From NCBI RefSeq assembly GCF_036711975.1, contig NC_091971.1:9741501-9805500 (forward strand): a stretch of DNA of 64,000 nucleotides. The letters are read 5' to 3'. Shown piece by piece: positions 13,301 through 63,433 of the stretch; the stretch's first letter is position 1; each line of letters opens with the position of its first letter. Under the pieces are notes generated by a model that searched no databases, had not been told where the DNA came from, and saw only the letters and a list, made by a program, of their open reading frames with translations. This DNA is from Onthophagus taurus (Eukaryota > Arthropoda > Insecta > Coleoptera > Scarabaeidae). The translations under genes and the position numbers were made by a program.

Positions 13301-16300
13301 TAGAAAGGATTGAATAAAATTGTCAAGATTTAAAAAAAGAATGAAAGGTTTTGGATTAGATATTAGGATAAAGATTTGTGAAATGTGTTTCCTTTCCCCA
13401 AAACAATGTGGTGTTAATAGCGGTTACCTTACGAGGTTTACATCGCACGATGGGGGCCCAAAAACCGAGGGGGGAGAGGAAAAGGAGGAGTTTGAAGGGG
13501 ATCAGACGGCGAGCGGTCGACGACGACAGAGCGAAAACATGACAGTGATCCATTATGGGTTGCGGGGGCGGGTGAAGTTGCGTGAGGTAAGGGCCAACAG
13601 ACGGATAGCCGCCGCAATGGTCAGCCGGGGTCGTTAGGGCGACTAGACGGGGCCCAGACGGGCCCCCAGACACGGGGTCCCAAACGAGCTCTACTACTCC
13701 GGAGGATATCTCAGCGTACTTTTCCCCCGGAAAACACGGCCCCTTCTATTCTTGTTTACCCGCACGATTTCCAAGGGAAAAGGGACCAAAACAATCTTGG
13801 TATATAGGTTACTGGAATTGCATAACATTGATATTCTGTTAACAAAAAAAGGTCTTTGTAATAAAGTTGTTAAGATAAAAACAAAGTTTACGTGATAAAA
13901 TGACGGAGACAAACCGTTTAATTTAGGAAATAGATTGTTAAATCTAACAGAGTTCAACTTGCATCCGACTGGCTACTTCCTCTGTACCGGCATTCTCTCA
14001 TCGTTAAATTGTATAATGTAGCCGATTTAAAAAATTGCCGTGCAATTCAATTTGCGAGCTTCAAACGCGTCGAAGAAAGATTTTTTTCTTGTTGAAAAAT
14101 TCCGAGAGAGAGACGTAAAAAATGTTTACACGTTCAAAAGGGATGGTGGTGTTTTAATGGCTGGCGGATGCAGACACACACATGCCGAAGATCTACATCC
14201 GGTCACCTTTGACCCTGGAAACCTGAGGACGTATAAACCGAACGAACGGCAGCAACAGCAGTCGTCGAGACTATTTACACTGTGCTACCGGCTTCGGGCG
14301 TATAAATACGTATCCGTTTACCTAAACTTTCTGGTAGAAAAAAAAATAAAAATAGAAAAAAAAATCGTTCTTTCGAACCAGTCAACCTCCGGCGAAAATA
14401 ATCCAATCAATTTAAAACAATCGCGAGCGTAATCTGTGCCGCTCAAACCATTCTGCGTCACATCCTTTTTAAAGTCAGTATGCTGGTTATATCAACATTC
14501 ACTTCACACATTTTAAATCTCACTAAAAATCCCCAAATAAAATCATCAAAAATAATACATAAAAAACAACCCCACGATTATCATCATATTTCTTTAAGGG
14601 GGAAGAATAAAAAGAAAACAAATCGATAAAAATACTCTTGTTATGATACTTCCGCTTCGGTAGTATGAAGTAGGTGGTCGCCTTTGTGGATGAGGAGAGT
14701 GAAAAGTGGCCCGTGCTAAAGTTCCCCCAAGGAAAAAGGAGACCCCTCATGGCAAAATTTTTTAAATAGCCACACGCCCGATTCTCACCCCTTTTCGCTT
14801 CTCCTTTCCCACCTGTGAAATGGTCGCGTGCGGCTACTGCGTGGGCGATTAGGTTAGGGTAGGTTCGAAGATGCGGCCCCTGTTTTGTGACAGTGATTTA
14901 ACAATTGGATGCCGACAGGAACCCTGGGGTTCCCCATCCAAGAAGGGGTCCTTGACAAGCCTTATTGTAATAACCCCAAAAAGCGACACTTAATACACTC
15001 GTAAAAGGAAAATATTTAGAAAATTAAACCAGTAAAAAAAAATCGTCAAAAGAATTAAAAATGTATCTTCTTAACAAGACTCTTTAATCTCCGGAATTAC
15101 ACTCTATCCCAAGGGAATCAACCTCTCCGCGTTTCTCCAACAAAGGGAAACAACCATCAGGAGGAGTCATTTACGTTCCCAACTCACGTACACCTTCATC
15201 GCTAACCACGTTTGTTTTCGCACAGTCCTATCGATCTGCTCGAACTTTAAAGCTGCTGCTCATAGTTTTCCTCTCCCTCCGCGACGTCCCTATCCGACAA
15301 ACTTTTCGTTCTCTCAATCCCCTCTTTCTCCTCCTCAAGTTGGAGGTGCGTCGTTGTCGTTCTCGCAGGATTCACTAACCTACGCACCGGTGCTGCCACC
15401 AAAACGCCGCCCTCGTTCAACGACGCTCGCCGACTCCAACTTCATCGTCCGTCCGTCAATCGATAAGAATACGAGCGAGCGGTGCAATGATGAGTCACGC
15501 GGACGCCTCTCCCCGCGTCCCAAACCGTCCCGACGCCACCACCAAAACCCTCCCCGATGCAACGCAGACATTGCTCTTCTTTCAGTTCGTACCAGGATTC
15601 GAAAAAATCAATCGTCGAAGAGAGAGAGAAAAAGAGAACCGTGTTTCGAGAAGGGTGTAAATGTCAAATGTTGCCGAATTTCAATCGGATTTAGTCGTTG
15701 TTTTAAAATCAAGGGGGCTTGAAATGTATTCTTTAAAGAACGAGCATTTTTTTATTTCTTTTTTAAACACTCATTTGTTATTATAGACAAAATTTATCAA
15801 AATATGAAGTTGTGTTGATATCAATCATGTTAAACATTGCTTCATGTTATGTATATTATAAGAAGAACCTTACGAACCTTGAAGATGCACGGCTAAACCC
15901 GAAACTTTCTAGTTTTAGGTCTAGTTTTACTTCAATACAAATTTGCGACAACCTGGCGCTGATTAACAACTAGAATACTAGCACTGTCACTAGAACAAAC
16001 AGTAGACCTAGAACTAGAAACATTCGGGTTTAGCCGAACGTCTCTCAAGACGGCTAAACCCGAATGATTCTAGTTCTAGGTATAGTGTTAGTTCTAGTAA
16101 CAGTGCTAGTGTAAAACTAGAACTAACACTAGACCTAGAACTAGAAACATTCGGGTTTAGCCACACGTCTCTCAAGACGGCTAAACCCAAATGATTCTAG
16201 TTCCAGATATAGTGTTAGTTCCAGTAACATTTGGGTTTAGCCGTCTTGAGAGACGTGTGGCTAAACTTTCTAATTCTAGGTCTAGTGTTAGTTCTAGTTT

Positions 16301-19300
16301 TAGTTCAATGGAAAATATATAATGTAAAGCTGAATAATAACTAAAATTAGAACTAACAGTAGCATTAGAACTAACACTAGACCTAGAAGAACTAGAAACA
16401 TTCGGATTTAGCCATACATCTTTTAAGATGGCTAAACCCGAATGTTTCTAATTCTAGGTCTACTGTTTGTACTAGAGACAGTGCTAGTGTTCAACTTTTA
16501 ATGTCCACTTTTAGTTCAATAAAAATATAGGCTGAATAATAATTAAAACTAGAATTAACACTAGACCTAGAACAAAACTTATCAAAATAATGAATTTCTG
16601 TTGATACAAATCATGTTAAACATTGGTTGATGTTATGTATATTATTAAACCGTCTTGATGTTTGGTAATTGGTGTTCGTAATCTTATAGAAACCACCTAC
16701 AAGCTTCCAAGCACCTATAAGCGTCGTGTTTATTTAATTATGCCAACGACCGTTTACACTCGAAGCTTGAAGATGGCTCGGCAAGCCCGTCCGTTGTTAC
16801 ACGAACGGGCGACAGCTGGTGGCAGCACGCGACTTTATCTATGTCAATTGTGACTTGTTATTTCATCTGCCGCTCCGCGTACTTTGCTTTTTCTTTCTTG
16901 TTTTTTCGATCACAAAGATTGAATGCAACCGCCGCGTCACCGTTCGTTCACCAAAAAAAAAGAAGAAAGAATTCCTCATCATCACGACAGCAAATTAATT
17001 TATTCGCCCTCAATTTCGTTAATGAGGAAATTATCCTATCAAAGTTGTTTTCTCACCCCTTCTTTTTAATAATCCGGGGGACGCGAATTGCCTCTGGTTG
17101 ATATTAAAAAAAAATTATCTTCCCCAATCTCGTTTACCCTCGAAATATCCAATACTGGAGTATAAAGATTGAGAGCAATTCGGGCCAAGTGCGCGATCAA
17201 CTTTCTACCTGTGGTGTGCTCTTTTCCCGTAAGACATATGCCGCAACCCTTTTATGTTTCACGTTTGTTTTTTTGTGCCTTTTCTTTTAGGGTATACGAT
17301 TACATCGGTGAGTGATATATCATCGTTTTAAAAAGACTCCGCCCGACACCCGAACAACACATGTTCCCGGGAACGTGGAATAATATAATAAAGATTAATT
17401 AACCGAGATTAATATTTATTTATAGCAAAAAACGTTTTAGACATTTCCAGGTGGGATAAACAGTTGGGTTGCGCAAAATCCATAGAAAATTGTTTCAATT
17501 TAAAATAATCAACATGTATTAATAACGGTAATAATAAATCCTCTCCATTAACAATACCTGCCATTAAAATTTCCTTAAAACGTTAACGAAGCCCGCATCT
17601 CCATAAATTTACATCGAGACAGCTTGCCTCTAACGGTTTTGCCGACGGATTTGCCCTCTCAAAGGTCTGATTCCGGTATACAAAAAGAAATGACTTTTCT
17701 CATGGTTGGACCAAGGGCTTCGGTTCTCATACTCAGAGCCCGAAACCTACTCAAACAGGTTTTCCTACTCTATTTGACAGATCTCTCTGTTTACGACCAC
17801 TATCCGGCCATTCTATGCTAAACTATGCCGAAGTGCATCTTATTCACCACACTAGTCCCTAGAGAAACGAAGAGACAGATTTGGACCGGTCTATCCTACG
17901 GGGTCATAAGGTCGTTTGAGAATGCCTCGTCATAACAATTCGAACGAAAAGAAAAATTATGGTCGAGTTCGTTAGAACGCAATGTAAAATTACTCAGTTT
18001 TTCACTGCGACGTTATTTCTATATAGCTTCCTGTCTGTCGGGCGACGACTGTTGAAGTTGACCAAATAAGAATAAAAAGTAGTTGGTTTATATCCCAGTT
18101 TTTATTTAAAAATATTTCGTATTGTAATCTATTTATTTTAGTAGATAGTGTTTCATTTTTTTTATTCTTCGTTTTCCGGTTTTATTCGCGGTAAATCGAA
18201 CCTATATTGTCACAAGGGCATAACAAAGCTTCGGTCGCCAAGGGCTGTATTTACTTGGTCCGCTCTACACAAACAGCTGGCAAAAGTTTATTCTCCAGGC
18301 GCAGCTGTTGGATTTGGTTCTTATACCTGGCAGCGCCATATAATATGGCATATGTTATGCCCAGCAAAAGTGGTTGTCAGTTACAGATACTCACAGTTCA
18401 ACTTGAAGCATATAGTTCTTTTCAAAGTAATAAAAATAAAATTATTTTATCATAAAATGTCTATTTTTGTATTATGGTAATTCAAAGAAATTTTTTAAAT
18501 ACTATTTTGTTTCATTATAATTAATTTGCTTGGTGCCTCAATTTTCCTTGTACAATGACCTCGTTTCCCTTAACAAAGATATACTATTATATTTCCTATA
18601 CCGCCATATGTCGCATCAGTTCATTTCTTCGTACAGAGATCGATAATGAACGGTGGTGAAGCCCTAAGCTGGGTTACGTTACGCGGAATTCATTTGCACT
18701 TCCTCTTCGAGGGTAGTAGAATTCAAAGCGAAAATAGAAAACTTAAAAAGAATCCAATGTATCGCGTAATTTAAATAGGAATACATACAAAAATTCTCAT
18801 TCGCAATTCCATTCTTTAAACTTTCTATTCATAAAATTTTACATTCATACAAAATTTTAATTATCTAAATTTATTTTTCCCGTTTGTGAAATTACCTACA
18901 TAAATTTTGTTGCCATCCCGAGAGTCCCTAAAAATCTATTATTCCCATTATATACGGTTAGACGCGGTGCGAATTTATCGGGAGCATTAATCCCGGGGCG
19001 TCTATGGCGGCGCGATGGCGTTGCGACGTTGCCATGTCGTTGTTTATACGCCAACCCTGATCCAACCTACCCTAAGCGCGTACATGGACCGACCCAATTA
19101 CGGCAGCGCCGACGTGTGCGTGTCGCAAGGGGGTAGTGCGGTGTTGTGAGGTGGCGGGGGCGGGGTGAAAAGGGGATTATAAACTGGTACACACACGGAG
19201 AGAACGCGTGCGATGCTGCGGAGAATTAAAAAAAAATTCAAAAGCAACCGAGGAACTAATTCCGTTTTGTTGCCGCCACCGCTTCCACCACCTCCAACAC

Positions 19301-21505
19301 ACACTACCACCGTTGACTCATTGTAATTAAAACGTGTCAGACTTCGCATTTACGAGCGTTAGGTTCTAATTTATAGTAAAATTCCGGTGAATTAATGATT
19401 TCATTCCGGAGGTAGATAATTCGTTCGAAATTATACCCAAGAGATATGCAAAAATCTGTGTCATAACCAAAAATTAATTGTAATATGATAATAAGTTTGC
19501 AGATATGTTATCATTTCTCACGAAAGTATAGTAAAATTTCGATATAACGGTTTGTTATAGCCAAAAGTTAAACGTGGGAACGTCTGAAGATGCACGGCTA
19601 AACCCGAAACTTTCTAGTTCTAGGTCTACTGTTAGTTCTGGTAACAGTGCTAGTGTAAAACTTCTGCCGAACGTCTCCCAAGATAGCTAAATCCAAATGT
19701 TCCTAGTTTTAGGTCTAGTGTTAGTTCTAGTGACAGTGTTAGTGTAAAACTAGAACTAACATTATACCTAGAACTAAAAACATTCGGGTTTAGCCGCACG
19801 TCTCTCAAGACGGCTAAACCCGAATGATTCTAGTTCTATGTATAGTGTTAGTTCCAGTAACAGTGATAGTGTAAACTAGTTTAGTTACTATCTAGCACTG
19901 AGTATCAATTAAAATTAGAATTACCGTCCTTGATTTATACATAGTATAGACATCTCGGGGAATACCCCAAGTTTATCTATGATAGATAATATTAATTAAA
20001 CTTGACTTAAAAAAATTTTGTCCGTCATATCGGAATTTAACTGTATTTATATTTATAATAATAATATAGTTATAGCGGTGCTAAAAATTTAAATCTAATA
20101 ATTTTAATTGAAATAATAGATACAAAATGATAGATTTGAAATGAAGAATTTCGCTTGCTAATAGAGATATAAACGCACTCACCTTTTTTTCGGTTAATTT
20201 TTCACAGCGCCGTTGCTTACAGATCTGATGGCTCTTGTCGTTTCTACAAGGCGCACAATCGCCACAGTTGTCCTTCCGTTGGCATCCGATACACTCGCCA
20301 CACCGTTTCCGTTTCTTCTTCACCTGTTTTCCTTCGTGGACGCCGCCCATGTCCATGTCCACGTCCAGCGCGCTATTCTGCATGGCATGGTGGGCCTTAA
20401 AGTTAGCGGTACTTGAAACGGCGGCTACTTGGCCGGAATTTTCCACCCCCAGGTCCATATTGCTGGAGGCGCCGTCGCTTTCCGCGGAACTTTCGAGGCT
20501 TGAGGCGCGGATTTTTCTTCGCTCCTTTTTTCTGAAGTCGTTTCTCGTCGGCGAGTTCGCGGTGGCATCGATTCCGTTCAATTTCTTGTCGAGTCCGTTG
20601 TAGATGCCGTTATCGAGCATGGTAGGCATGGGGTTTTGGAAGTGATTGGGGTGGAGGTTTTGGATTTTCAGGCCGGTATCCTGCGGGACCAAAGTGGCGA
20701 GGTTGGAGGTGAGCTTTAGTTCCGGTTCGGACTTTATCACAGTGACCACCGTTGGGGATCCGAGGAGTTGGCTATTTTGAATGAGGGCGGTCCCATTTTG
20801 GGGTTGGAAGATACCTCCGGTATTGAGGGTGGTGATGTTTGTGGGGTGTGTATACAGCTGGATGTGACGCTCGTCCAGGAATTGTTGCTGTATCGACGGT
20901 ATTTCCCGGGCCTGGATCGGTGCGGGCACTAAGGGGTAGTTCCTCGGGTTCACAGCACTTAGAGTATGGAAGTTCGAGTTGAGTGTGGTGAGGGTTGGAC
21001 TGGAGGACGACGGTGACAGCGGCGTCAGGTTCGTGAGCGTCGTCAGCGTCGGCTGATCACTGGTGGTTGCGGGTTCGTTATAGCTCTGAAACTGGGACTG
21101 AAACGATGGTAACTTTGAGGGACCATTCTGCGTTAAGGTGTCGGCTATTACCGTTGCAGGTCCGAAGCCGTGTTGACTCGTTGAATCCACCGGTTTTGAC
21201 TCCCACGGACGATATTGTGGTTGCGAGGTTATTATTAGGTGACCGTTTTCGGTGCGGTCCAATAATCGCGTTTCCGTATAATAGTCCCAGTTGGAAATGT
21301 CCAGGAGCCGGGTATCGCCCAGAAATCGGTCCGTGGCGAATCCGGTGGTGTCCATTTCGTTCGAAAACGTGGAGAACGGTGGCAGATTTGATCCTGGAGG
21401 GTCTTGCACCGTGGAACTTGGCGTGGCTGGGGTTGGTGGGTAGTTAGGAGCCAGGCTGTATCCGGAACCCAGCGCTTCCGGATCCTGGCTTAATGTCTCG
21501 CTCAT
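1362..21505 (-). CDS. Tet: TET methylcytosine dioxygenase, CXXC-containing, seven exons
   Basis: Fe(II)/2-oxoglutarate dioxygenase of the TET family, which oxidises 5-methylcytosine in DNA; insect orthologues are also linked to RNA 5-methylcytosine. Exons on the minus strand: 21505-20183, 8923-8852, 6904-6767, 6092-6023, 4826-3489, 3423-3284, 3218-1362. All phases agree and give 1645 aa. The ATG at 21505 has an in-frame TGA a few codons upstream. Exon 1 ends in a CXXC zinc finger (KKKRKRCGECIGCQRK, then CGDCAPC). Exon 5 ends and exons 6-7 carry the Cys-rich region (YYTHLG, KAIRIEKVRYTGKEGK, GCPLAKW). The double-stranded beta-helix has the iron ligands in HAHKDTHNM and AKHEMHATT and the 2OG arginine in PTRISLVFYQH. 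A long Ser/Asn/His-rich insert splits the catalytic core, as is usual for TET. All key residues are intact. Exons hidden in the 11.3-kb first intron are possible but not needed for phase. Confidence 0.95.
4827..6022 (-). other. Tet intron 4, probable decayed repeat
   Basis: Intron between the 70-bp exon and the large Q/N/S-rich exon. It begins with a 10-bp-arm hairpin (TTATGTGAGT at 4966-4975 and ACTCACATAA at 4982-4991). A short run of AACCTAG-like repeats follows near 5000-5050. Plus-strand fragments at about 5050-5250 loosely recall a piggyBac transposase (LSLISQ, then NPLKDRIYNL), but too many stops intervene for a firm call. No exon seen. Confidence 0.4.
6093..6766 (-). other. Tet intron 3, no gene seen
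   Basis: A locally GC-rich block (about 6290-6480) with overlapping open frames on both strands lies within AT-rich flanks. None shows family similarity or usable splice phase. I read it as ordinary intron. Confidence 0.5.
6905..8851 (-). other. Tet intron 2, with two inverted repeats
   Basis: No exon recognised. It contains an 11-bp inverted repeat (8172-8182 with 8212-8222) and a perfect 14-bp-arm hairpin at 8723-8753 carrying two AP-1-type TGACTCA sites, about 100 bp upstream of the exon in genomic coordinates. Confidence 0.5.
8723..8753. promoter_or_regulatory. Perfect hairpin with paired AP-1-like TGACTCA sites
   Basis: Arms GTATGACTCATTAA and TTAATGAGTCATAC are separated by GAT. Each arm carries TGACTCA/TGAGTCA, the consensus for AP-1/CNC bZIP factors. 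It lies about 100 bp from Tet exon 2. Regulatory use is inference. Confidence 0.5.
10425..11184. mobile_element. Outer MITE with TA target and TTCCCAAAAGTAAC ends
   Basis: The left end (TACAGTGCTTCCCAAAAGTA) and the reverse complement of the right end (TACAGGTTTCCCAAAAGTA) match for about 40 bp, continuing as AAATTCGKTAAAAC. TA duplications flank both ends, as in Tc1/mariner-type non-autonomous elements. A second inverted pair (TGTTTCAGATAT) lies inside the ends. There is no coding capacity. A different MITE occupies its centre. Confidence 0.75.
10674..11094. mobile_element. Inner MITE with duplicated AAGGGCCGGTTGTACC termini
   Basis: The ends are inverted repeats of the form TAAGGGCCGGTTGTACCA, followed by CTCCCGATAAA. 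Each terminal module occurs twice in tandem: left at about 10674 and 10730, right at about 10985-11015 and 11075-11094. The whole is a stepwise palindrome that would fold into one long hairpin. It lies inside the outer MITE, so it inserted later or the two grew together. Confidence 0.75.
11668..11960 (-). pseudogene. Possible piggyBac-type transposase remnant
   Basis: A minus-strand frame contains KAKTREIRPKLSMGRVRGI followed by KWPLICRDAKNVIM. This recalls the stretch of piggyBac transposases in which a KKGEI motif precedes a K-W-x-D-K/R-x-V block. The flanks are broken by stops. The assignment rests on one short motif. Confidence 0.3.
13010..13034. repeat. Perfect hairpin GGACGTCCTTT/AAAGGACGTCC
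   Basis: Eleven-base arms are separated by GGG, and each arm contains the GACGTC palindrome (CRE-like core). It lies in the large Tet intron within a locally CpG-rich stretch. Confidence 0.8.
15791..15859 (+). repeat. Left direct repeat flanking fold-back copy 1
   Basis: It shares almost its full length with 16576-16645 in the same orientation, including the identical stretch CATGTTAAACATTG, with a handful of substitutions and one indel. The two copies bracket the array. Confidence 0.8.
15881..16575. mobile_element. CTAG fold-back element, copy 1
   Basis: An array of six-base steps (CTAGTT, CTAGGT, CTAGTG, TTAGTT and variants) alternates in orientation. It is punctuated by GGGTTTAGCC or its complement and by the small hairpin CGTCTCTCAAGACG. 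Long inverted repeats result. This copy lacks clear TIRs but is bracketed by direct repeats at 15791-15859 and 16576-16645. Confidence 0.8.
16576..16645 (+). repeat. Right direct repeat flanking fold-back copy 1
   Basis: Partner of 15791-15859. At about 70 bp it is much longer than any DNA-transposon target duplication, so it probably reflects a local duplication or capture of flanking DNA. Confidence 0.8.
19529..20045. mobile_element. CTAG fold-back element, copy 2, with TIRs
   Basis: The left end is TAGTAAAATTTCGATATAAC. The right end is a decayed inverse (ATATCGGAATTTAACTGTA). The core holds the CTAG hexamer arrays and the GGGTTTAGCC/CTAAACCC hairpins. It lies in Tet intron 1, just outside the CXXC exon. 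Confidence 0.75.
20183..21505 (-). other. Tet: Tet first coding exon with CXXC DNA-binding finger
   Basis: This 441-codon exon is phase 0 at its donor (AAG followed by GTGAGT). Its first 370 or so residues are Pro/Ser/Thr-rich and look disordered. The last 50 residues hold the CXXC domain with eight spaced cysteines (CGECIGC, CGDCAPC, then two later Cys) and a basic KKKRKR lead-in. In this family the domain binds CpG-containing DNA and recruits the long isoform. The next exon is 11 kb away, so a shorter isoform without this exon would need an internal promoter. Confidence 0.85.
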
Positions 21506-27017: not shown

Positions 27018-27234
27018 GTAATATCTACATAACAACATGGTCTTCATTAAATATTTCTTATTAAATGTTATATTCATTGTGATTTATTTATTTTATGTTT
27101 CTATTTGTATAATTATATGCTTTGTTGTGTTTATTAATGTACTGAGTATTAATTTAGTGATGTTTTAAAATTTATCAATAAATAATTTTGTTATAAATCT
27201 ATTTAGTTTATCAAAAATTCCCCCACACTAGTGT

Positions 27235-36495: not shown

Positions 36496-36496
36496 C

Positions 36497-38004: not shown

Positions 38005-38750
38005 TACAGTAAAACTTCGATATATAGCCAAAACTTCGTTATATGAAAAATTTGCACTTTAAAGTGTTTGAATGAATAATTAGAACTAACAGTAGACCTA
38101 GAAAATATATACAAGGTAGTTAATATACAACAATCTAGCGCTGAATAACAATTAACGCTAGAAGACGCACGGCTAAACCCGAAACTTTTTAGTTCTAGGT
38201 ATAGTGTTAGTTCTAGTATTAGTTCTAGTTCTACACTAGCACTGTTACTAGAACTAGCACTATACCTAGAACTAGAATCATTCGGGTTTAGCCGTCTTGA
38301 GAGACGTTCGGCTAAACCTGAACGTTTCTAGCTAGGTCTACTGTTTGTTCTAGTGACAATACTAGTGTTAGATCTAGTTGTTGATCTGCGCCAGGTTGTT
38401 GCAAATTTGTATTGTACAAAAACTAGAAGTAACACTAGAGCTAGAACTAGAAATATTTGGCTCGGCTAAACCCGAAACTTTCTAGTTCTAGATCTAGAAG
38501 CCGTCTTGAGAGACGTGCGGCTAAACCCGAATGTTTCTAGTTCTAGGTATAGTGTTAGTTCTAATTCCGCACTAGCACTGTTACTCCTACTAAAACTCTA
38601 TCTAGAACTAGAATCATTCGGGTTTAGCCGTCTTGAGAGACATTTGGCTAAACCCGATTGTTTCTAGTTCTATTTTTAGTGTTAGTTTTCCTTTTAATAA
38701 CAATATCATGACTTAAAAATGTTTTGTTCATTATATCGAGTTTTTACTAT
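38005..38750. mobile_element. CTAG fold-back element, copy 3, with TIRs
   Basis: The left end is TACAGTAAAACTTCGATATA and the right end is the inverse TATATCGAGTTTTTACTAT. The core has at least four CTAG-hexamer arms alternating in direction, with GGGTTTAGCCGTCTTGAGAG hairpins between them. It lies immediately 3' of the PKG-like kinase gene. Confidence 0.85.
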
Positions 38751-38769
38751 AATAACAAACTTTTAAATA

Positions 38770-40778: not shown

Positions 40779-42404
40779 TTTATCTGAGCAAATTGCACAA
40801 TGAAACTATGTTTAATTTGCACTTTGCAAAACAGAAAAAGGTTAAGAAAATATTTGTTATCAGGTATCTGATAATAGTAATCTTCACGATATTCCTCTTC
40901 GAATCTAAATAATACTACCGTAATCTCAAAAAAAGTCAGATACATTTTAAATTTAACGTAGGTTTTATGATAGTTTAAATTAGCCTGATATATAGGGGGT
41001 CTCAAAAAAATGTTGTTTAAACATTAACATTTTAAATAAATTTCAAAAGTAAATCGGAAAGACAAAAAGGGGTTTGGACAGAGAGCAAGGAGGTTGGAAA
41101 AAGACCAAAAAAGGAGAAAGAGACTGGATAGAAATTGGAAAAAGAAGAATAAGACTGTGCAGAAAGACTGGGAGAAAGAACTAGAAGAAATTGGAAGAAG
41201 TAAACTGAACAAAGTCTGGAAAGAGAAAATAAAATAGACATTGGAAATATAGAAAGGAGATTTGGCAGATAAGATGGACACTGAAAGGAGACCAGAAATG
41301 GAAGAAACAGACTGGAAGAATTAGAAATGAAGCAAACTAGAAGAAATTACTAGTCATTTTTCTAGACATTGAAAAAATAGGAAGAAAACTGGACAGAAAG
41401 GATGGAGACTGGAACATTTTCGTTAAAGTACGCCTGACACCTAGTGTCATTCTAGACTTTTTCATCAAATCTAGAGTTGGGGCAGTGTAATTCCAGACTT
41501 GTTCTTCTTATTGAGACTTTTCTAACTGTGATGCCAGGCAGGTTTTTGAACTTTAAATTTTTTGTAGTATAATTCCAGAAAGTTTCTTGCAATTTAGAGT
41601 TAGGCCAGTGTATCTTCAGACATTTTCCTGCAGTTTAAACCTTTACCAGTGTAATTCCAGACTTTTTCTTCAAATCTAGAGTTTGGCCACTGTAATTCCG
41701 TACTAATTCTTGAAGTTTAGAGTTTTGCCAGTATGTTTCCAGATATTTTCTTGCAATTTAGAACTTGATCAGTATCATACCACGCTTATTCTTGTAATTT
41801 AGACTTTTATCAGTGTGATGCCAGACAGGTTCCTGAGCTTTAGCAGTATAATTCCAGCTAGTTTCTTGCAATTCAGACATTTTTTTGTACTTTAAAGCTT
41901 TGCCAATGTAATTCGAAACGTTTTCTTTAAATCTAGAGTTTGGCCAGTGTAATTCCATACTAATTCTTGCCGTTTAGAGTTGTTCCTTTCAAATCATGTA
42001 AATGAATCTGTACAAATGTGATGATCTAAGACTAATACTAAAATTGCTAAAATATTAGTTAAAAATATAATATATAACATAACAGAAAAAAAATGTCTCT
42101 AAAATAATACAACTAAATAAGCGACATAATTCTGAACACCTGTATTTTAAAATTTTTATTAGATATAAAAAACGATTGACCTTCAATTCAAAACATTAGC
42201 TTTTAATCTTTTTATTGTATTATTAAATGTAAAATTTTTATTAATCTGTTTTAAAAAAAACATTCAACTTTCCAAACGAAATTAGTTTTAGGTTATTTAA
42301 ACAGGAAAATTACAAATTTAAATCAAACAAACCATACAAATTTATTCTTTATAATTAAATTAAATCAAATATAATTTCCATATAATTTTATTTTTACAAA
42401 AAAA
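40779..42404. other. Intergenic region between kinase and TSR1, two low-complexity tracts
   Basis: From about 41040 to 41430 the plus strand is strongly purine-rich with recurring GACTGGA and AGAAATTGGA words. A degenerate tandem repeat then follows (41430-41990). After 42000 the sequence is plain AT-rich DNA containing the TSR1 3' flank. No gene seen. Confidence 0.6.
41430..41990. repeat. Degenerate minisatellite, about 45-60 bp unit
   Basis: Variants of GCCAGTGTAATTCCAGACTT followed by TTCTTG(C/A)AATTTAGAG recur at least ten times with small indels. Two copies of the longer form GTGATGCCAGRCAGGTT also appear. The array looks old and unevenly eroded. Confidence 0.75.
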
Positions 42405-46849
<4,445 letters not shown>

Positions 46850-47241: not shown

Positions 47242-50200
47242 ATGGATAATAAAGTAATGGACTGCTTTGCCGAGAATTGTGGCAAATTTGCCACGTTAAA
47301 TAGGAAATTTGGTGAAGTTTTGAACAAATTTGATTTGAAGGTAGGTTTTGTGTTAAAAATGGAACTAAAACTTAATATAAATTGTACAAAATTGTTATTA
47401 TTACCGAATAATTATGATAAAAGATATTAATTTGTTTATAATAACTTTTTGTACAATTTATTGGTGTATATTGGGTTGTATATACGGATGAAACCCAACA
47501 TACATCTTTTTTGATATTTTAGAATTTGTCCAAGCATGAAATAAATCATATTAAACAAATACTTCTAAAGTATTTATTACACCCTGATGCAACAATTTTT
47601 GTGGCGAAAAATTTTCCGCAAGATCTTCCAGATTTGCTTACAAAAGCTATAAACATTGAGGAGGTTCAATTAAACAATGAAAATCATATTAGAAATTGTT
47701 TAATTCTTTCAAAATTACTCGATGTACACCCTGATGTTGAGAGGTTTGTTTCACATCAAAAATAAGAATTATTTAATTAATTATGATTGTTTTAGTTTTG
47801 TTATAAAATATTTTGAAAAAAATCCATCACCTTTTATTTCTTTAAACAATACACAACAACCAAAAAAACAAAGAACTAATAAAGAATTTATTGTTCTTAA
47901 TGATAAAGAAATAATTTGCATGGTTTATAGTTTTTTGAAAAAGATGCCTGATTATTTTAAGAGAAAATGGTGTTGGTCTGAGTTTATAGAAAAATATGAA
48001 AATAATGTTGATGAAACAGTAAAATGGTGAGATTATTTTCATTATTTAATTATTAATATTTAGAAGTTTTATTTGTTTTAGGATTTTTTGTAATTGTTTA
48101 GCAATTATAACAAATATGACAGAAATCACATTAAGAAAGTTTATTTTGACTAAATTAACAGAAACTCAAGCTAATCAATGTTCAATTAAATATCTAACTA
48201 ATAACTCGTTAGAGAAAGATATAACTTCAATAACTTTTAATAATTTTGATGATTTTATAACACCTAAAGTAACATCATTAACTAATATAAACGGTATATA
48301 TTTACCAGTTATTGGAGAACCAATTGAAAGTGTACAAAAAATCGTTGAAGTTGATTCAACTAACGACAATTTAAAAAAAATTGCTTTGGGAATTGTTTCC
48401 AATAAACGCATTAACTTAATTGGACCCGTTGGATCGGGAAAAACGGCATTAATTGAATATTTAGCGTCGAAAACTGGAAGAATTTTAGGCGAAAGTTTTA
48501 TTAAAATACAACTTGGAGATCAATCAGATAGCAAAATGTTATTGGGAACTTATAGATGTACAGATATTCCTGGGGAATTTATTTGGCAACCTGGCGTGTT
48601 AACACAAGTAATGTTATATTATGTAAAACTATTTTTCCTGAAACTATTATGTAATCATCAAATTAAAATTTGACACCATGACAATCGATAACAACGCGTT
48701 GTGGTTTTTTGAATAATTCTTTTTTAATCAAATTGTCATTATATTTAGTGGTTCTTTAACTTTTCAATACACGCGCTCAAACTATGAGTGTTACACATTA
48801 GCACTGTCACTAAAAGTATTACTAGACCTAGAACTAGAAATATATAGTGGCTTCTTACTAAAAAATATTCAAACTAAAACACCTAGGAAAAAGAGTAAAT
48901 TGATTTTTAGTAATCTGTTAATTGCATATTCAAAAAATAAACACAAAATACAAAAATTTATTCACTGTAATAAAAAAATATATAAAAATAAACTAAAAGA
49001 GTACAAAAACTATGGCACAAGCCAAAAAATTGGAAACAATTTCGTGTAGATGCTTTTACAATAGATAAGGGGGAATTCCCTATTAATTTTTTTGTATTAT
49101 TCCCGTGGAAATCTAGCTTTTTATTCGAAATGTCTAGACAAAAAGGCCAAACAACTATTGAAATTAGAAAATTAGTTCAAACATTTCCAGGAAGGAAAAT
49201 CAGTACAAGAAATTGCAAAAATTATAGACAGAAGCCATTCTACGGTGCACAATATAATAAAGCGTTTCATTATCCACAATCGGGTGGCAAACAAGCGAAA
49301 GGGCGCTCATAATAAAATTTTTATTGAATTGATTGAACGATATTTAATAAGAAAAATGAAAGCGGATCCATTTCTTAGCGCACCAAAGCTGGCCATTATT
49401 GCTGAGAATGAACTAGGGAAAAAAGCTAGTGGATCAGCCATCAGAAACATGCTCCATAATGCTAATTTACACGGTAGAAAGGCGAGAAGAAAACCGTTCA
49501 AAATGCGTATCTCAATGTTTTAAAAACCAGTTTACCTCATAACGTGGCTAAACTATCTCTTGGAAGCGACTAACGATTCTACCAAGACAATGATCCAAAA
49601 CGCAAGGCGTACAAAGTACGTTCTTGGCTCTTATATAATTGTCTTCATGTAATCACTAGAAACAATACTAGGCCTAGAACTAGAAACATTCAGATTTAGA
49701 CGTCTTGAGAAATGTTCTGCTAAACCCGAATGTTTCTAATTCTAGGTTTAATGTTTTTTCTAGTGATTTAATACAAAAACAGTAAATAATGTAAATAAAT
49801 AATGGAAGGTTAAACAACAATTTTAATAGTTTCAGGAAAAATTTAATACTATCCACATCTGCAAAGTTGACTTGTTAGACTCAGAATTTAAGAAAAAACT
49901 CATTGTTCCTCGTCTACAATTAACAACTTTCCAGATTTTGATGTAACAAACGATTTTTTATTATTTTTTTATTTATTTAGGCCGTTATGGACGGTAGTTG
50001 GTTATTATTAGAAGACATTGATTCCGCTAGTATCGATATAGCATCATTGTTAAGCGGTTTGTTAGAGAATGGTTACTTAACAGTACCCGGGTACAGAGAT
50101 TATGTACCAATTAAGCAAGGATTTCAATTATTTGTCACTCAACGATTACTACCAAGCGTTTCCGGTTACCAACGAATAACAACACCATCAACAGTTTTAT

Positions 50201-53200: not shown

Positions 53201-56200
53201 ATGATAGCGTTTTAGAACGATTAAATTCGCTTCTAGAACCAGAAAGATCGCTGCTATTAGCCGAAAAGGGAATCGATATCAACAATCAAGCCAATTCCGA
53301 ATTGATAATTGCCCATCGCGATTTCTATTTCATCGGAACGATGAATCCGGGCGGTGATTATGGAAAGAAGGAACTTTCCCCGGCTTTACGAAATCGATTC
53401 ACCGAAATTTGGAGCGAACCCTGCTCAAATCGGCAAGATTTTATTAACATAATCAATCATAATGTGAAAACCAACGTTTTAGAAACTTATAATATTGGTT
53501 TTGGAGAGCTAATCATGGATTTTATTGATTGGTTTCAAAAAGAAGATATAGGAAAACAGTTCGTATTTTTATTAATATAGTATAACCTTGATATAGCAGA
53601 TCTCGTTATAACGAACTTCGGATATAACGTACAAAATATTTTTAAGTCACTATTAATATTATCTATCCTACTAACAGTGCTAGTGTAAAACTAGAACTAA
53701 CACTAGACATAGAACTAGAAATATTCAGGTTTAGCCCAACGTCTCTCAAGACTGCTAAACCCCTCTCAAACTAACAACACGAATTGAATAAACTAAGCAT
53801 TTGCTAATTCAAAGCGTGAAATAGTAGTATATGTGACGTCACGAACGGGCCTTTGAGCGGTGCACCTCTTAGATTCTACCGTCCTTGGTATAAATATCCG
53901 AATTGATGTGCATTAAAATTATTTATATTATATTCTGTTATATCGAGGTTTTACTACACCCAAATTATTTTTTTTATTTCTTTTAATACCTTTATTATTT
54001 TTTTTTAGATTTTCATTAACAATTCGTGACGTTTTAACCTGGGTGAACTTTATAAACGCTTGTTCAAATAAAATATCGATTAAAGATTTATATTTAAATG
54101 GAGCTTACATAACAATTTTAGATAGTATAGGTTCAGGTGTTCTTAATATTGAAAACAAAGATGTTATTGCAAATATTAAATCAAAATCACGACAATTTTT
54201 ATTAAACACATTAAAAAAATATAATATTAAACCTGACTTAAAAACTAATGTAAATATCAACGATGATGATCAATTTAAAATTGGCCCATTTTCGATTCAA
54301 ATCGGATTCGCTGAAACTCCGGAAACATATTTTTCTTTTCAAGCACCAACAACGTTTTATAACGCGTTAAGAGTTGTTAGAGGGATGCAATTAAATAAAC
54401 CGATATTATTGGAAGGTAGTCCCGGTGTTGGAAAAACTAGTTTAGTAACAGCTTTAGCAAATGCAACACAAAATAAACTTTATCGAGTTAATTTATCAGA
54501 TCAAACTGACATTTCTGATTTATTTGGTGCTGATTTACCCGTGGAAGGTGGAAAAAGTGGCCAATTTTCTTGGAGAGATGGACCCTTACTTCAAGCTTTA
54601 AAGAAAGGTCATTGGGTTTTATTGGACGAATTAAATTTGGCTTCCCAATCAGTACTGGAAGGTTTAAATGCTTGTTTAGATCATAGAGGAGAGATTTTTA
54701 TCCCCGAATTAGGAAAAACTTTTGTTGTAAAAGAAGGAACGAAATTTTTTGGATGTCAAAATCCAATAAGACAAGGTGGATCTAGAAGAGGTCTCCCAAA
54801 ATCATTTTTGAATCGTTTTACACAAGTTTACGTTGAATCGCTCACTTTAAATGATTATCAAATAATTCTAAAATCGCAATTTCCCCAAATTGAGGAAATA
54901 TTAATAGAAACCATGGTTAGGTTTAATACTGAATTAGCAAAAGTATTAAACAGACATTTATTTGGACACTTAGGCGGCCCTTGGGAATATAACTTAAGGG
55001 ATTTAACTAGATGGTGCGAAATTATAACTGAAGATTTTAAAGAAACCGGAAAATTCGAACCCGAGAAATTTATTAATTTGATTTACGCGAATAGATTACG
55101 AAAAGAAGAAGATAGAAATTTAATGAGAGAGTTATTCCAATCTTTTTTTAAAACAAATCCAAATTTAGAACATGGAATTGTTTATGTTACCTTTGATAAG
55201 ATTTTTATTGGTGATACATGGATGAACCGCGAAATTTTCAATTTTAATTTATCTGAAAAAGATTCGAATTTATTGGTGTTGAGAGGTCAAATGAAAAATT
55301 TGAGGGATTTATGTTATTGTGTTAAAATGAATTGGCTAGCTATTCTGGTAAGTTTTATTTCACCATACATTCAGCCATAGATTTAAGAATGAAAAATAAA
55401 AGTGAAAATTTTCTTAATCTTTTTATGTGAAATGTCTCCAAAAAATGTAATGACAATGCAATTTTACTGTACCAAACTAGGAATAATTATTTCATGCCAA
55501 AAAGAATGTTTTATTACAAACTAGTGTCGCAATGCGAACACGAAAACTTTAGTTTAGCTAATTACGTCAGAGTTGCTGAGGTATTCCCCGAAGATCGGAA
55601 GCGCGGAACTTGAGGAATAATTTGTCTGTCAATTATTTATACCCGATAACCTAAATTTCCATGTTAACAGAAATAATGAGTCTTCAAATGGATTATGACA
55701 TTAATTAAAAGGAAATTGAAAAGTTGAGAAGGAGGTTATTACAAAAGCTGGGTAATTTTCTTATTTGTGTCATATTTGTGATGCTGGGCTAAGAAGTAAA
55801 CCCTTATTTAATACTGTGTCTCCAAGGTTAATTCGGACACCACTACTTTTGGATTGGTTAGGTATTGACTACCCCAATTTCTTACAAATACTAGGCGGAT
55901 TTTTGTCTCTTCCAGCAAAGCGCCCTTAATCTCAGGTTTTACTGGAAATTTCATGTTTCCTAACCTTGGCATGTAAATAGTTCCACAATATTTGGGTGGG
56001 ATTTATGTCTAGGGTTTGGAGGTTTGAGATTCTCACTACATAAGAATAATTATACATTATTTTGGATCGTTATCTTGATAGAGTCTGAAAAATAGTTTAT
56101 CCATTATTCCTTCAATCAAGTGTAAAGATCTTAGTCGAGCAACTAAATACAACCCCGACACCATCACATGATCTACCATTATGCTTTACAGTTCTTTATA

Positions 56201-58133: not shown

Positions 58134-61100
58134 TTACATATAATATTTAATTACCATAGAGCTATCGGGGTGGGCGGGAATCGGAAGGGGCGTCTTGAGG
58201 AGCGATATGTCGGCTTGTCTGGGGGGATCAGGCGGCGGGGGGACGTTTGAATTGCCCAGCCAGTGGGGTAGCCATCCGCAGCAAAGGTCCAGGGCTGCCC
58301 TTCGAAGTCCCCTATGTAGAACCAGGAAGAGTGTAGGGTTCACGATGGCGTGAACGTATGATATGTGCAGCGTTATCTGAAACAACGGAACGAAAAGGGT
58401 GGTCGTACGTTATCTTTCTGGGCTTCTTTTATTCCACATCGTAAAGGATCCTCTCCCTGCAGGTACAGGATCCGGGCGGATCGTTCTTAGGACGACGCGT
58501 TTATCCGATTACTGTCACTATTGGCCTACTCTTAACGGGTTTTACCAACAACGGGATTTTTTCGGACCCTCGTAAAATTAACGAGTTTTTTTCTTTTTGT
58601 GATGATAAAGAATAAATGACTTTTTGTTTTTATGGTACTTAAGTACTATTTATTCATTTTAAGATTTATTTAAATATTTTCTTGTATAAGTAAATGCTTT
58701 TTTATCGATCGTAGCATCTAGAAGCCGAAAACCCTAAGGCTGATATACTAAACCGCTACTATCTATTTAAATGAGAATGACTTTTTATAGCAAAGTCTAC
58801 TAAGATAGGTTTTGCAGAAAAAAAATAATATGCCCCAGGATAGTTTATTTTATATTGTGCAACGTGTCTACTTCAATTTACCGAGTGTTGCCGAAGGCTT
58901 GGTGATAGTCGTTCTTTTCAAACGCCCATTACGTACGCAAACATCCTCGCGACCCAAATGCTCGACTCATCCAGACGAAGGCGACTATGGGCCCCCCCAT
59001 TAAAATTTATGGCTCAGATTACGGCATTAGCCCGCTAGAAAGTATCGGCATAAATCATTTTCTGGACGAGTTAAGATCGTGCGTTTACCCTCAAAATCCG
59101 AAATGACGCTCTTAAAAGGGTTGTCGGTTTCACCCTCGAATATGTCATCGGCCACGTATTCATTTGTTTGCGACTAGGCACCAGGGATTGCTCGTTTTTT
59201 TATAACGGCTTGACTCTCTTGAACTTGTGCGCGTGGAATAAAAAATACAGGGAGCGGCGGCGTTGGGTATGGAACGTGACCGGTTTTCATGAATATGGAA
59301 ATACGGCCTGGATGTACGTTTTTAACATTTGAGTTCGCTTTTATTTGTTTTTCTGGATGATTCTTTGAAATATGTATTGAACGTTTATATTAAATTAAAA
59401 TGAAACTTATCATATGAGTTGCCAATTCGTTTCGGGTGGTTCATAATTTCATGTTCGGGAGGTCTTAGTGAGAGCATAAACACTTGGAATCAAACTTCGA
59501 TCGTCGTTTCCGAGTTCAGGTGTTTTCCAGGAGAATTTAATAAGTTCTATAGCGCCATTGTGTCTGTGGAGTTTTAGGGTACCGCGAGGGTGGCTTCGTA
59601 AATCGAAATTTCGTCTCTGATCGGCAGATGTTATAAATGGTGTTTTGGAGATTTGACAAATTTTACCCTTGGGCGTTCGATGATGAATATAGGAACTTTT
59701 TTGTGGTATCGTTTTTGGACCGATTTCTTACCTCGTGTCCTAATGGGTTTCCAAGGACCGGGTGGTTTACTAACGTGACGAAAAACAGTGGTCCCCAAAA
59801 TAATACGTAAGCAGCCGTTATAATAACGAACATTTTCACTCGTTGGACTCCGTCTCTTTCCATTCTGTCTAAATATTCGCGCATTTTTCTGTGTTCTTCT
59901 AAAGCACCTGATACCTGTAAGGAACAGAGAAGAGAAATGTATAAATCTGGAATGATATGTTGTTTGATAAAAATATTTCTGCTTTGGTGTACTTTTTCCT
60001 TATAAATTTAAAGCTATCTCACGGACGGTTTTTGTTCCCTACTTTTCCCCTTTAAATTTATGCTGTAATTTCGCATAATTTATGCGATAGGGGAATGAAA
60101 TATCCTGCGAAATTTGTTTTGGAACTTTTCCTACTTATAAGTCTTGAAATCTGAGCTGAGCGCGGACGGCACAATTGAACCGTTGCGTTCAACTGTCAAC
60201 TGTTTCGATACTAAATTTACATTCGAACAAAGCGGACCCGTGTTACACGTTTCGCGCGTCCGCTCGGAAACCGCCTTCGTTCCTTGCCTTTTAGACGATA
60301 CGGACGTGGTGATTTAAATCGATTTCGGGTACGAACCCGATTAATTCTCTTACACGCGAATCGGAGGCGGCCGCCTCCTGTACCGGAATCAATATGGGAT
60401 GAAATACGTTCATTCGGGCCTTGGATGAGCATATGATTTACGCGATTTATCCCCGGTTTGCGCTCTAAATGTTCGTAGCTTACACTCGAATCGTAAACGT
60501 TGATGGTTTGATATATTGGTGATTTACCAGTCCTTTCAAAAGTTACAACCGATTTATTACTTTTTTCCAAACATCAAATATTAACTCAATGATTGATGTG
60601 TTTTGATTTAAAATGTCCTAGTAACGGTGCTTGTGTAAAACTAACACTATACCTAGAACTAGGAACATTCGGGTTTAGCCAAGCGTCTCTTAAGACGGCT
60701 AAACCCGAATGATTCTAGTTCTAGGTATAGTGTTAGTTTTAGTAACAGTGCCAGTGTAAAACTAGAACTAACACTAGACCTAGAACTAGAAACATTCGGG
60801 TTTAGTGTTAGTTCTAGTTGTTATTTAGCGTTAGATTTTAGTATATTTTTCTTGAACTAAATGTAGAACTAACATTAGACTTATAACTAGAAATATTCGG
60901 GTTTCGCCGTCTTAAGGGACGCTTGGCTAAACCCGAATGTTTCAAGTTCTGGGTCTTGTATTAGTTGTAGTGCTAATGTTAGTTCTAGTTTTATTTATTA
61001 TTCACCGTTAGATTGTTGTATACTTTTCATTGTACTAATAACTAGAGCTAACACTAGAACTAGACAGTTTCGTGTTTAGCGGTGCATCTTCAGATTATGA

Positions 61101-63433
61101 ATAAAATTTTGCAGATTATTAATTAAAAATTTTGCATACAACGAACACTCCCTTCCCTGTATTAATCTATGTTTTACTGTATTTTTGTTTAGCGAGGTTT
61201 ATAACTTAGGATGAAGTGTTAAGCAAGGTTCTCCCCGATGTAATTAAGTACGTAGTCATCATACCTGTTCACCTGACAGAAGTTACGTGAAATATTTTAA
61301 TATTATGCAGGTTTAATCGTCCACCCTCCGGTTCTGCCACCCCGTATTAAGTTCCTGCAGGCCTCTAAATTATGTTTCATTCATTAAGTAAAGTGGAAGG
61401 GGTCTTGGAGCTCTGGTTTACGCCCCGCCGACGTCGACGCCGTTTACGTTTACACTTTACACGTTTAACCAACTGAACGACTTGGTCCACGTCGGACCGT
61501 TTAGTGTTTTACCCTGTATTGCGGGTTTTAGTTTCTAGAAAAGAGAGAAACTCAACGCGCCACTAAAACGCTTTTCTTTTTAAAATTTAATTAAAACGTG
61601 GTTAATAACAGTTAGCTTGTAAAAGGTTTTTTTGATAAAAATCTTGTAACCTGGTTCTATTTTTAGTTACTATTTTTGAGAAATCAATCAATAACGTATC
61701 AATAGTATTTTTTTATTGCATTTTGCTTACCCGTTCACCGTTGACGTTGGTCTGGTGAGATGCACTAGTGTCGTTTCCGATGGGTCCCCCGGGTATAGTG
61801 GGGACTCTTCCACCACCCGTCACGTTAACGAGCGTAGTAACCAGGCCTGCGACCCGTACGGCCTCCACGTTCGCTTTCGTCAAGTCCCTGTGGAGCTTTC
61901 GCAAGTGGAATAGCGTCAAGAGGACACACACTATATTTACGGCGATCCAGAGCGCGTTCAGGATGTAGTGTCGCAGAGGGCCGTGAATCAAAGGGCAAGA
62001 GGGTGCTCTGTGACCCGGTTCGCCCGGCGCGGCCAAAGCACCTAAGACACAAAAAAAGAAAGGTGAGAGAATCCCTAATAAGTTTCACAATTTCGTCGCG
62101 AGAATAGAGATGAGAACGGAAGGAACAAAAGGTGCAAGTGTTATAACGGGGAAAATTTTTACGTACGGTCTTTTTAAAAGACTGAAAAAAACATGCGGAA
62201 TAATTCACGGCTGACAAGCTAAAATTCCGCTGGATTCTCGTGCCAAAAACAAGAAATCCAATTTGTGACAACCGCGTAATCCTCGGACGCTTCCATTAAA
62301 ACAAAATGAAAATAAGGGCGCGTCGCGGGTTTCAGGATTTTCGCTCCCATTGCTGATTGTATCAGTTAACAAACTTATTAACTCTGTAGTTTAATTTTGG
62401 ACCGAGTTTCGAGTTTTGCTTTTTCGTGCGGGAAAACGTCAACTTTTTCAGAGCTCGGGTCGTTTAAGCACTTGAGGCGTTTCAATTAAGCCCGCGGAGG
62501 GTTTAAAGCGGCCTCACGACGACCACTCACCTCGTCAGGGCAATTGTGCCGTTGGCTGTTTGCTAACACGCGAAGTCGGCTCGTGTCCTTCCCCAAAAAA
62601 GCCCTCCAGAAATCCTCAAGTTTGATTTTAAACCCCACATCGTTAAAACGAAACGCTTTACAACTTCGTTATCGCCGTGAAATTGGATTATTTACAAGTT
62701 TGTTAGAATCTCGTGGCTTTCGCATTTATAATTTAATATTTTGAAAGTTTAAAAAACTGAAACACTTTGAAAGCTCGCGATTTTAACTTTGATACATTTG
62801 TAGAAGTTCAGTTGTGTGTGGAGATCGGTTTTGCGATAAAGTCCACCGCAGGTTCCTGGCATCGAATCCGGTTGAAAATTTATACCATCCGGACCAGTAA
62901 ATTTCAAAACGATCCTTGGCATTCATCCGCAGATATATAATAAAATACCTGTGTTACTCGACCTTACCCAGTAAATTCGCACTATGTCTACCTAGTTGAA
63001 ATGATAGATTCCCGACAACAATCTAGCATTCCTTAAGCACTCTCGACCTTATTAGCATTCGACAAGCCCTAAGTGCACATGCTCTTCGTTGCCACACGTA
63101 CCCGATAGGAACGTCGGACCTAAATTGATGGTAATAGAGGCGAACCAAATCATGAAGGTGCCGAATAGAACACACTGCGGCGAATCCATCAAGAGAGGCG
63201 CCTCCGCATATTCGGAATCGTCGCTTTCGTCGTCTGGAAATATCGGGGAGTCGTTCAAGACTGTCGTCAACATGTTAACTGTGGCGACGGTCACTAACAG
63301 TAGAAATGCTGTCTCAACCAGCGAGCACTTGTGCACTGGTTGACAGTGCAATATAGACATTCCTAAGGGTAATAATAGGGCGGCCCTCGCACAGTCCACA
63401 ACTCCCTGATGAAACAGTAACCCTTGGGACCAC
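58134..63433 (-). CDS. Orphan class A (rhodopsin-like) GPCR, 5' end missing
   Basis: Exons 63433-63102, 62041-61731, 59914-59732 and 58376-58134 join in phase. They encode helices 2 to 7. TM2-TM3: CARAALLLPLGMSILHC, VETAFLLLVTVATVNMLTTV. TM4: VLFGTFMIWFASITINLG. TM5: YILNALWIAVNIVCVLLTLF. TM6: MFVIITAAYVLFWGPLFFVT. TM7: ISYVHAIVNPTLFLVLHRG, an NPxxF variant of NPxxY. A CC pair in the tail (ALDLCCGW) may be palmitoylated. The third intracellular loop is long and partly basic. The start codon, N-terminus and TM1 are not in the window. I place it among insect orphan receptors without a known ligand and would not assign a symbol. It lies antisense to MDN1, possibly within its intron. Confidence 0.85.
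60617..61182. mobile_element. CTAG fold-back element, copy 7
   Basis: A long CTAG-hexamer core with several inverted arms and GGGTTTAGCC hairpins. The right end (CGAACACTCCCTTCCCTGTA, then TTTTACTGTA) matches the right flank of copy 4 (AACACTCCCTTCCCCATATT). The left TIR seems lost. It lies in the GPCR intron between the TM5 and TM6 exons. Confidence 0.75.
62042..63101 (-). other. GPCR intron, no gene seen
   Basis: Intron between the TM4 and TM5 exons. Several overlapping open frames on both strands have no family similarity. A CpG-richer stretch lies at about 62270-62560. Confidence 0.5.

What the first reader, a model, noticed from the sequence alone, without database searches (positions are those of the whole stretch)
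15881..61182. Seven copies of a CTAG-hexamer fold-back element, possibly an undescribed family
Copies at about 15881, 19529, 38005, 43245, 48785, 53578 and 60617 share a core of six-base steps (CTAGTT, CTAGGT, CTAGTG, TTAGTT) arranged as inverted arms. The arms are joined by GGGTTTAGCC plus the mini-hairpin CGTCTCTCAAGACG. Single strands or transcripts would fold into chained hairpins. Six copies are in introns, in both orientations. The mixture of a simple six-base periodicity with precise long inverted repeats is unlike an ordinary MITE and resembles Foldback elements. Transcribed hairpins could feed small-RNA pathways.
Basis: partly seen in the sequence, partly recalled or inferred. Interest (0 to 1): 0.8.

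Follow-up and report, generated by a model that had tools for sequence, protein, structure and literature searches.

The report
Hairpin satellite carried by transposon-like elements
The seven repeats are real and belong to a large family in what looks like an insect genome, in which a 127-base hairpin unit rides partly inside small transposon-like elements and partly as free short tandem arrays; it looks like a new example of a known pattern rather than a new kind of element.

Summary
Observation confirmed: a profile built without window units finds the repeat at all seven loci and not in 10 randomised windows or the reversed window. It is not local: 5,213 exact hairpins genome-wide (control 0) and 34,978 single arms at up to 2 mismatches (control 17) in 291 Mb.

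The unit is a 108-bp near-perfect palindrome plus about 19 bp of spacer (127-bp step), with six-base steps around a G+C-rich stem.

Four of seven copies carry it at both ends; a fifth has one degenerate end. Of 30 genomic copies of this terminus, the core lies inside in 27 and outside in 0. The genome holds at least 150 pogo-type transposase matches; one of 9 inspected has a related terminus.

Best reading: non-autonomous pogo/Tc1-mariner-type elements whose hairpin repeats also occur as dispersed satellite arrays. Published parallels: TCAST transposon-like elements and Tetris. Results against: most sampled termini lack a partner within 1.5 kb, most long arrays lack the terminus, and no transposase with the identical terminus was found. 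Small-RNA roles are untested.

The parts
15876..16575 (.). E1: core array without the terminus (profile hits 15880-16475), flanked by a 73-79 bp direct repeat of host sequence (15781-15859 and about 16568-16645); putative Tet intron
   Evidence: best terminus match 11 and 12 mismatches of 23, i.e. none
19527..20045 (.). E2: element with the terminus at both ends, core at 19583-19856; putative Tet intron
   Evidence: 3 and 5 mismatches of 23; core
38005..38751 (.). E3: element with the terminus at both ends, core at 38161-38688; 18 bp from a kinase ORF stop codon
   Evidence: 3 and 3 mismatches of 23; core; fold
43243..45033 (.). E4: element with the terminus at both ends, core at 44642-44899, split by a nested insertion; Tsr1 intron
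   Evidence: 2 and 4 mismatches of 23; core; exons
43313..44568 (.). Nested insertion inside E4 with CAGTG...CACTG ends and an 8-bp near-duplication ATCTATAC/GTCTATAC (hAT-like by recall)
   Evidence: read from the sequence printed
48790..48839 (.). E5a: core fragment of about 50 bp in a midasin intron
   Evidence: family D8; not found at E 0.01
49651..49785 (.). E5b: single hairpin unit in the same midasin intron; a Tc1/Tc3-type transposase fragment (49176-49523) lies between E5a and E5b
   Evidence: no terminus (11 and 11 mismatches)
53576..53958 (.). E6: element with the terminus at both ends, core at 53691-53762; midasin intron
   Evidence: 5 and 3 mismatches of 23; core; exons
60611..61181 (.). 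E7: core at 60636-61093 and a degenerate right terminus ending at 61181; no left terminus found
   Evidence: right end 7 mismatches of 23, a level reached by 2 of 578 control scores, but its first 11 bases TACAGTAAAAC are exact; left 10 = none; core

Best explanation
A modular repeat family. Small DNA elements of pogo/Tc1-mariner type (terminus TA|CAGTAAAACYTCGATATAACG, TA flanks) carry a 127-bp, self-palindromic tandem unit. Shown: the unit and its palindrome, its genome-wide spread, the short terminal inverted repeat, the one-sided association of terminus and core, and the presence of many pogo-type transposases, one of them in an element with a related terminus. Inferred: that a pogo-type transposase acting in trans moved the two-ended copies into introns; that array length changes by unequal exchange or slippage at the hairpins; and that free arrays arose by loss of the ends, local amplification or capture by other transposons. 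No cellular function is indicated; the copies look like decaying selfish DNA.
For: Terminus pattern at up to 2 mismatches: 864 + 859 places, reversed control 0 + 0. Homology among 30 terminus loci starts sharply at TA|CAG, except in 8 that share an outer flank. Core inside in 27 of 30, outside in 0 of 30, first unit 35-288 bp from the terminus; again 27 and 0 when the profile excludes units from those loci. Window copies: terminus at both ends in 4 of 7 with 2-5 mismatches of 23; in control stretches of 120 bp the best match was 7 or more in all 578 scores. Ends agree in 16-18 of the first 20 bases, near chance beyond. At 8 of 11 second ends the flank is TA. At least 150 DDE_1 matches. L081: 22-bp TA-bounded perfect inverted ends TACAGTAGAGCCCCGATTATCC around an open 535-aa frame with CENP-B_N, HTH_Tnp_Tc5 and DDE_1; its end matches the family terminus in register (P 0.008 by shuffling, not corrected for choosing the best of five transposon ends found).
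Against: Only 6 of 30 terminus loci had a credible second end within 1.5 kb by pattern, 5 of 30 by profile. Of 19 core regions not chosen by terminus, 16 have none at 5 mismatches or fewer (these were top matches to the window cores, so biased to long arrays). No transposase with the same terminus was found among 9 inspected of at least 150; L081's end differs from it at 7 of 23 bases, a level also reached by chance places in L082, L084 and L087, so the case rests on its position at the inverted ends. Ends beginning TACAGT were seen in 3 of 9 (L081, L082, L083), other TA-bounded ends in 2, none in 4. Eight of 30 terminus loci share a further outer flank, so for them the true border may lie further out. 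The pattern contains TA, which biases the TA count.
Confidence: 0.65

Rival explanations
1. A Foldback-type element (one mobile unit whose own ends are the hexamer arrays that fold back).
For: Strong folding, internal tandem repeats of variable number, a described precedent in which Foldback repeats become satellites, and the statement there that the foldback form may arise in different lineages (PMC4079207).
Against: The dyad lies within each unit, and the inverted ends that flank 4 of 7 window copies are about 20 bp, outside the array. Tetris has 8-10 bp duplications; here 8 of 11 second ends are TA.
Confidence: 0.14
2. A dispersed satellite whose spread does not depend on transposons; the association with the terminus is later hitch-hiking.
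For: Arrays without the terminus in 16 of 19 regions not chosen by it. E1 (one of the 16) has a unique 73-79 bp flanking duplication instead of a TA (2 matches of 2 candidates).
Against: The one-sided association, 27 of 30 inside and 0 of 30 outside, is far from random.
Confidence: 0.16
3. Hairpins are kept by selection as a source of small RNA or as a chromatin or cruciform element.
For: Own arms match slightly better than arms shuffled within loci: 7.55 against 7.70 mismatches of 46 (P 0.015, 2,000 shuffles); 106 compensatory cells against 93.9 +- 6.5. The central stem diverges less (about 5-6%) than the outer arms (about 11%).
Against: The effect is tiny and the compensatory count lies within the shuffles' maximum of 115. 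The stem figure is biased, because units were collected by a stem pattern. Copies diverge about 9% from the unit consensus. No expression data.
Confidence: 0.03

Closest known systems
TCAST transposon-like elements of Tribolium castaneum (PMC3411249; outline with abstract and section 8 read)
   Same: Beetle satellite monomers both as short arrays and inside a hairpin-forming non-autonomous element linked to mariner/Tc1; many copies lack one or both TIRs; many lie in introns.
   Different: There the satellite is part of TIRs of about 269 bp, the duplication is ACT, and 34 elements near genes are described; here the inverted ends are about 20 bp with TA flanks, each unit is itself a palindrome, and the unit is far more numerous.
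Tetris / TIR-220 of Drosophila virilis (PMC4079207; abstract, section 10 and part 1 of section 16 read)
   Same: Non-autonomous element whose internal tandem repeats vary in number and also form satellite arrays; no transposase copy with its ends found.
   Different: Long TIRs, 8-10 bp duplications, suggested Mutator; about 220-bp repeats not described as palindromes in the parts read.
pogo/Tigger-like Tc1-mariner elements (PMC7325037, passages only)
   Same: TA duplications in Tc1/mariner; DDE_1 + CENP-B_N transposases in the same genome with ends beginning TACAGT.
   Different: No transposase copy with the identical terminus was found; the hairpin-array cargo is unusual. That pogo ends typically begin CAG is recalled.
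Satellite-like arrays carried by Helentrons in Crassostrea gigas (PMC7492417, title and start of abstract in the search listing only)
   Same: Short satellite-like arrays dispersed by a non-autonomous mobile element.
   Different: Another class of carrier.

Membership tests
Non-autonomous pogo/Tc1-mariner element (MITE-like) | TA target-site duplication | tested here: inconclusive
   TA at 8 of 11 second ends; the pattern contained TA; no empty site compared
Non-autonomous pogo/Tc1-mariner element (MITE-like) | Terminal inverted repeats at both ends | tested here: inconclusive
   Both ends in 4 of 7 window copies but in only 5-6 of 30 genomic loci within 1.5 kb
Non-autonomous pogo/Tc1-mariner element (MITE-like) | Terminus shared with an autonomous pogo element | tested here: inconclusive
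   Related and in register with L081 (7 of 23 differ; P 0.008 uncorrected); no identical one among 9 inspected of at least 150
Non-autonomous pogo/Tc1-mariner element (MITE-like) | No transposase gene of its own | tested here: inconclusive
   Three open frames made of core sequence (L031, L039, window 37989-38327) match no Pfam family; a DDE_Tnp_1_7 (piggyBac-type) fragment adjoins the core in L044. The other frames of the 30 loci were listed only
Foldback element (FB/Tetris-type) | Long terminal inverted repeats that contain the tandem repeats | tested here: not met
   In the 4 two-ended window copies the inverted ends agree in 16-18 of the first 20 bases and near chance over the next 100; palindromic units still make every array fold back
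Foldback element (FB/Tetris-type) | Duplication of 8-10 bp (as in Tetris; not necessarily defining for all Foldbacks) | tested here: not met
   TA at 8 of 11 second ends; of 24 regions only E1 shows a clear longer flanking repeat
Satellite-like tandem repeat | Head-to-tail arrays of a constant unit | tested here: met
   Steps mostly 126-131 bp, with exceptions, in 7 fetched array stretches holding 7 to 33 arm matches each
Catalogued Repbase/Dfam family | Match to a deposited consensus | not testable with these tools
   No such library here

The most novel reading that the evidence does not exclude
The palindromic 127-bp unit is itself a mobile module: hairpin-driven breakage, replication or capture lets it pass between unrelated transposons (a pogo-type element, a flank with a second CAGTGAATTTCACTTAAG-like end, a piggyBac-type copy) and into bare DNA without any terminus, leaving one-ended copies and, in E1, a unique 73-79 bp flanking duplication.
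Probability: 0.1. Interest if true: 0.6.

Novelty: new variant of a known kind. Interest (0 to 1): 0.33.

Why it matters
It adds an abundant case of a satellite unit carried by a DNA transposon and scattered through gene introns. Because two-ended, one-ended and free copies sit side by side in one genome, it would allow a direct test of how transposon cargo turns into satellite arrays and whether hairpin units cause the loss of one end. As a family it is mainly a gain for repeat annotation; no cellular function is indicated.

Tried and rejected
Rfam: no match at gathering scores in the window. Telomere-derived origin: contigs C1 and C11 start with (CCCAA)n, i.e. (TTGGG)n, not TAG-type hexamers, so no support. 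Hairpin arms derived from the terminus, as in Tetris: local alignment of the family terminus to the unit is not above shuffles (P 0.21 and 0.64); for two other pogo ends P was 0.59, 0.84, 0.04 and 0.40, the 0.04 (L082, 8 bases) being one of six uncorrected tests. Flanking duplications as general borders: of 24 regions only E1 clearly exceeds its shuffled control (31 against 12); L014 (15 against 11; 12 against 10) and L052 (14 against 13) exceed slightly, with A+T-rich or distant words, and were not taken as real. A run of + strand arms along C1 in the listing was put down to how the list is cut. Species: (TTGGG)n is reported for scarabaeoid beetles including Onthophagus taurus (PMC8233369, two passages) and for a lacewing (PMC12564400, listing only); this suggests a beetle but does not prove it. 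The SSU rRNA search did not complete.

An autonomous element with the same terminus was sought by comparing, by eye, the listed terminus places (100 of 1,723; 40) with the 150 listed DDE_1 places: no pair within about 3 kb was seen. This is not exhaustive.

Rows dropped: 7 of 242 hairpins with another loop length; second-end candidates in L024, L032 and L034 (5-6 mismatches of 20), the first two lying in hexamer runs and the third being doubtful; L039 at 5 mismatches was kept because the profile supports it.
Full report
What was checked. The window is G000:C6:9741501-9805500 of a 290.8-Mb genome in 33 contigs. A profile of 231 hairpin units, none from the window, gives 44 hits in the window at the seven loci and none in 10 second-order randomised windows or in the reversed window.

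Anatomy of the unit. 242 distinct hairpins were collected from the fetched loci and the window by a stem pattern; 235 with a 16-base loop were used. Their consensus is a 108-bp palindrome with 45 of 46 arm positions complementary; by its loop it occurs in both orientations (129 and 106). With about 19 bp of spacer it gives the 127-bp step seen in arrays. Arm and spacer carry a six-base step. Folding is far beyond shuffles.

Spread. The exact double-arm pattern has 5,213 places (it is its own complement, so both strands give the same number; control 0). One arm at up to 2 mismatches has 17,458 + 17,520 places (control 9 + 8). The listed hits lie on contigs C1, C2, C3, C6, C7, C8 and C11.

Termini. 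Mismatches of 23 at left/right: E2 3/5, E3 3/3, E4 2/4, E6 5/3; E7 10/7; E1 11/12 and E5 11/11. Of 578 control scores in 120-bp stretches the best was 7 (2 cases), so E7's right end is only suggestive. The inverted ends agree over about 20 bp (16-18 of 20) and near chance beyond. Genome-wide the pattern has 1,723 places at up to 2 mismatches against 0 for the reversed control.

Association. The tool cut out the first 30 exact places, all on C1. Homology among them begins at the terminus, except in 8 that share an outer flank. The core lies inside in 27 of 30 and outside in 0 of 30, also when units from these loci are left out of the profile. L025, L028 and L037 lack it.

What does not fit. A second end within 1.5 kb was credible in 6 of 30 by pattern: L029, L038, L039, L046, L047, L050; by profile in 5 of 30, without L047. 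In 24 core regions examined for borders, 5 had been chosen by terminus; of the other 19 (one is E1 itself), one has both ends (L067), two have one (L052, L004) and 16 none at 5 mismatches or fewer. These were top matches to the window cores, so long arrays are over-represented. Eight terminus loci share an outer flank, and three of them (L027, L035, L043) show a second TACAGTGAATTTCACTTAAG-like end further out. In L044 a piggyBac-type transposase fragment (PF13843, 3.5e-20) follows the core. E1 has no terminus and is flanked by a 73-79 bp direct repeat that has only these two matches in the genome.

Carrier. The genome has at least 150 DDE_1 matches, many in long open frames (150 of 1,691 candidates were scored). 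Nine were fetched. L081 has perfect 22-bp TA-bounded inverted ends around a 535-aa frame with DDE_1, HTH_Tnp_Tc5 and CENP-B_N. Its end TACAGTAGAGCCCCGATTATCCG matches the family terminus in register (P 0.008, uncorrected), though 7 of 23 bases differ and that level also occurs at chance places in other loci. L082 and L083 also have ends beginning TACAGT, L085 and L089 other ends, and in L084, L086, L087 and L088 no TA-bounded pair was found. None of the nine has the family terminus. I therefore call the carrier pogo-type by resemblance, not by proof.

Selection on the hairpin. If hairpins mattered individually, arms of one unit should match each other better than arms shuffled among units of the same locus. 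The excess is very small (7.55 against 7.70 mismatches of 46, P 0.015; 106 compensatory cells against 93.9 +- 6.5, maximum 115; 225 units in 34 loci). Identical units were merged beforehand; units of one array may be split over overlapping loci. Weak and inconclusive. The lower divergence of the central stem is partly an effect of collecting units by that stem.

Gene context. Tet_JBP and CXXC exons flank E1 and E2; E4 lies between two consecutive pieces of the Tsr1 C-terminal domain (profile 1-59 and 68-160); E5 and E6 lie between midasin exons; E3 follows a kinase ORF; E7 lies near a weak 7-transmembrane match. Enrichment in introns was not tested.

Compared with what is known. TCAST transposon-like elements (section 8) and Tetris (section 10 and part 1 of section 16) show the same pattern of satellite units inside a non-autonomous DNA element and as free arrays. 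Passages of a Tc1/mariner review give TA duplications. Text searches for the terminus and core sequences found no relevant paper. Whether the family is catalogued in Repbase or Dfam is unknown.

Verdict. A real, abundant, modular family; a new variant of a known kind. The most open points are the missing second ends, the cognate transposase and the E1 flanking duplication.

Noticed in passing
window 15781-15859 and about 16568-16645: A 73-79 bp direct repeat (89% identical) flanks the terminus-less E1 array and occurs nowhere else in the genome at that sensitivity; too long for an ordinary target-site duplication.
   Followed up: partly
L010 (C1:1-3000), L013 (C11:1-3000): Contig starts carry (CCCAA)n, i.e. 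(TTGGG)n telomere-type repeats, reported for some beetles and a lacewing.
   Followed up: partly
window 43313-44568: Insertion nested in E4 with CAGTG..CACTG ends and an 8-bp near-duplication; hAT-like by recall, Pfam gives nothing for its ORF 44188-44520.
   Followed up: partly
window 49176-49523: Tc1/Tc3-type transposase DNA-binding fragment (PF01498, 1.1e-14) between the two pieces of E5.
   Followed up: partly
window 34515-35995: Degenerate tandem repeats of about 172 bp (337-bp dimer).
   Followed up: no
window 41410-41986: Degenerate 41-bp tandem array, about 12 copies.
   Followed up: no
window 10676-10803 and 10924-11102: Two short tandem repeats with 56-bp and 83-bp units.
   Followed up: no
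L044 2148-2543: A piggyBac-type transposase fragment (PF13843 DDE_Tnp_1_7, 3.5e-20) directly after the hairpin core.
   Followed up: partly
L021, L022, L023, L027, L029, L035, L040, L043, upstream of the terminus: These eight of 30 loci share an outer flank, in most ending ATGTCAATATAATTTGACAT|TACAG; three (L027, L035, L043) show a second TACAGTGAATTTCACTTAAG-like end further out.
   Followed up: partly
L053 and L056 left flanks, L016 right flank: Core regions without the terminus share another flank (GTTTTGC.. GAAAA..TTTTGCTTGGAAAA-like), suggesting a further carrier (read by eye).
   Followed up: no
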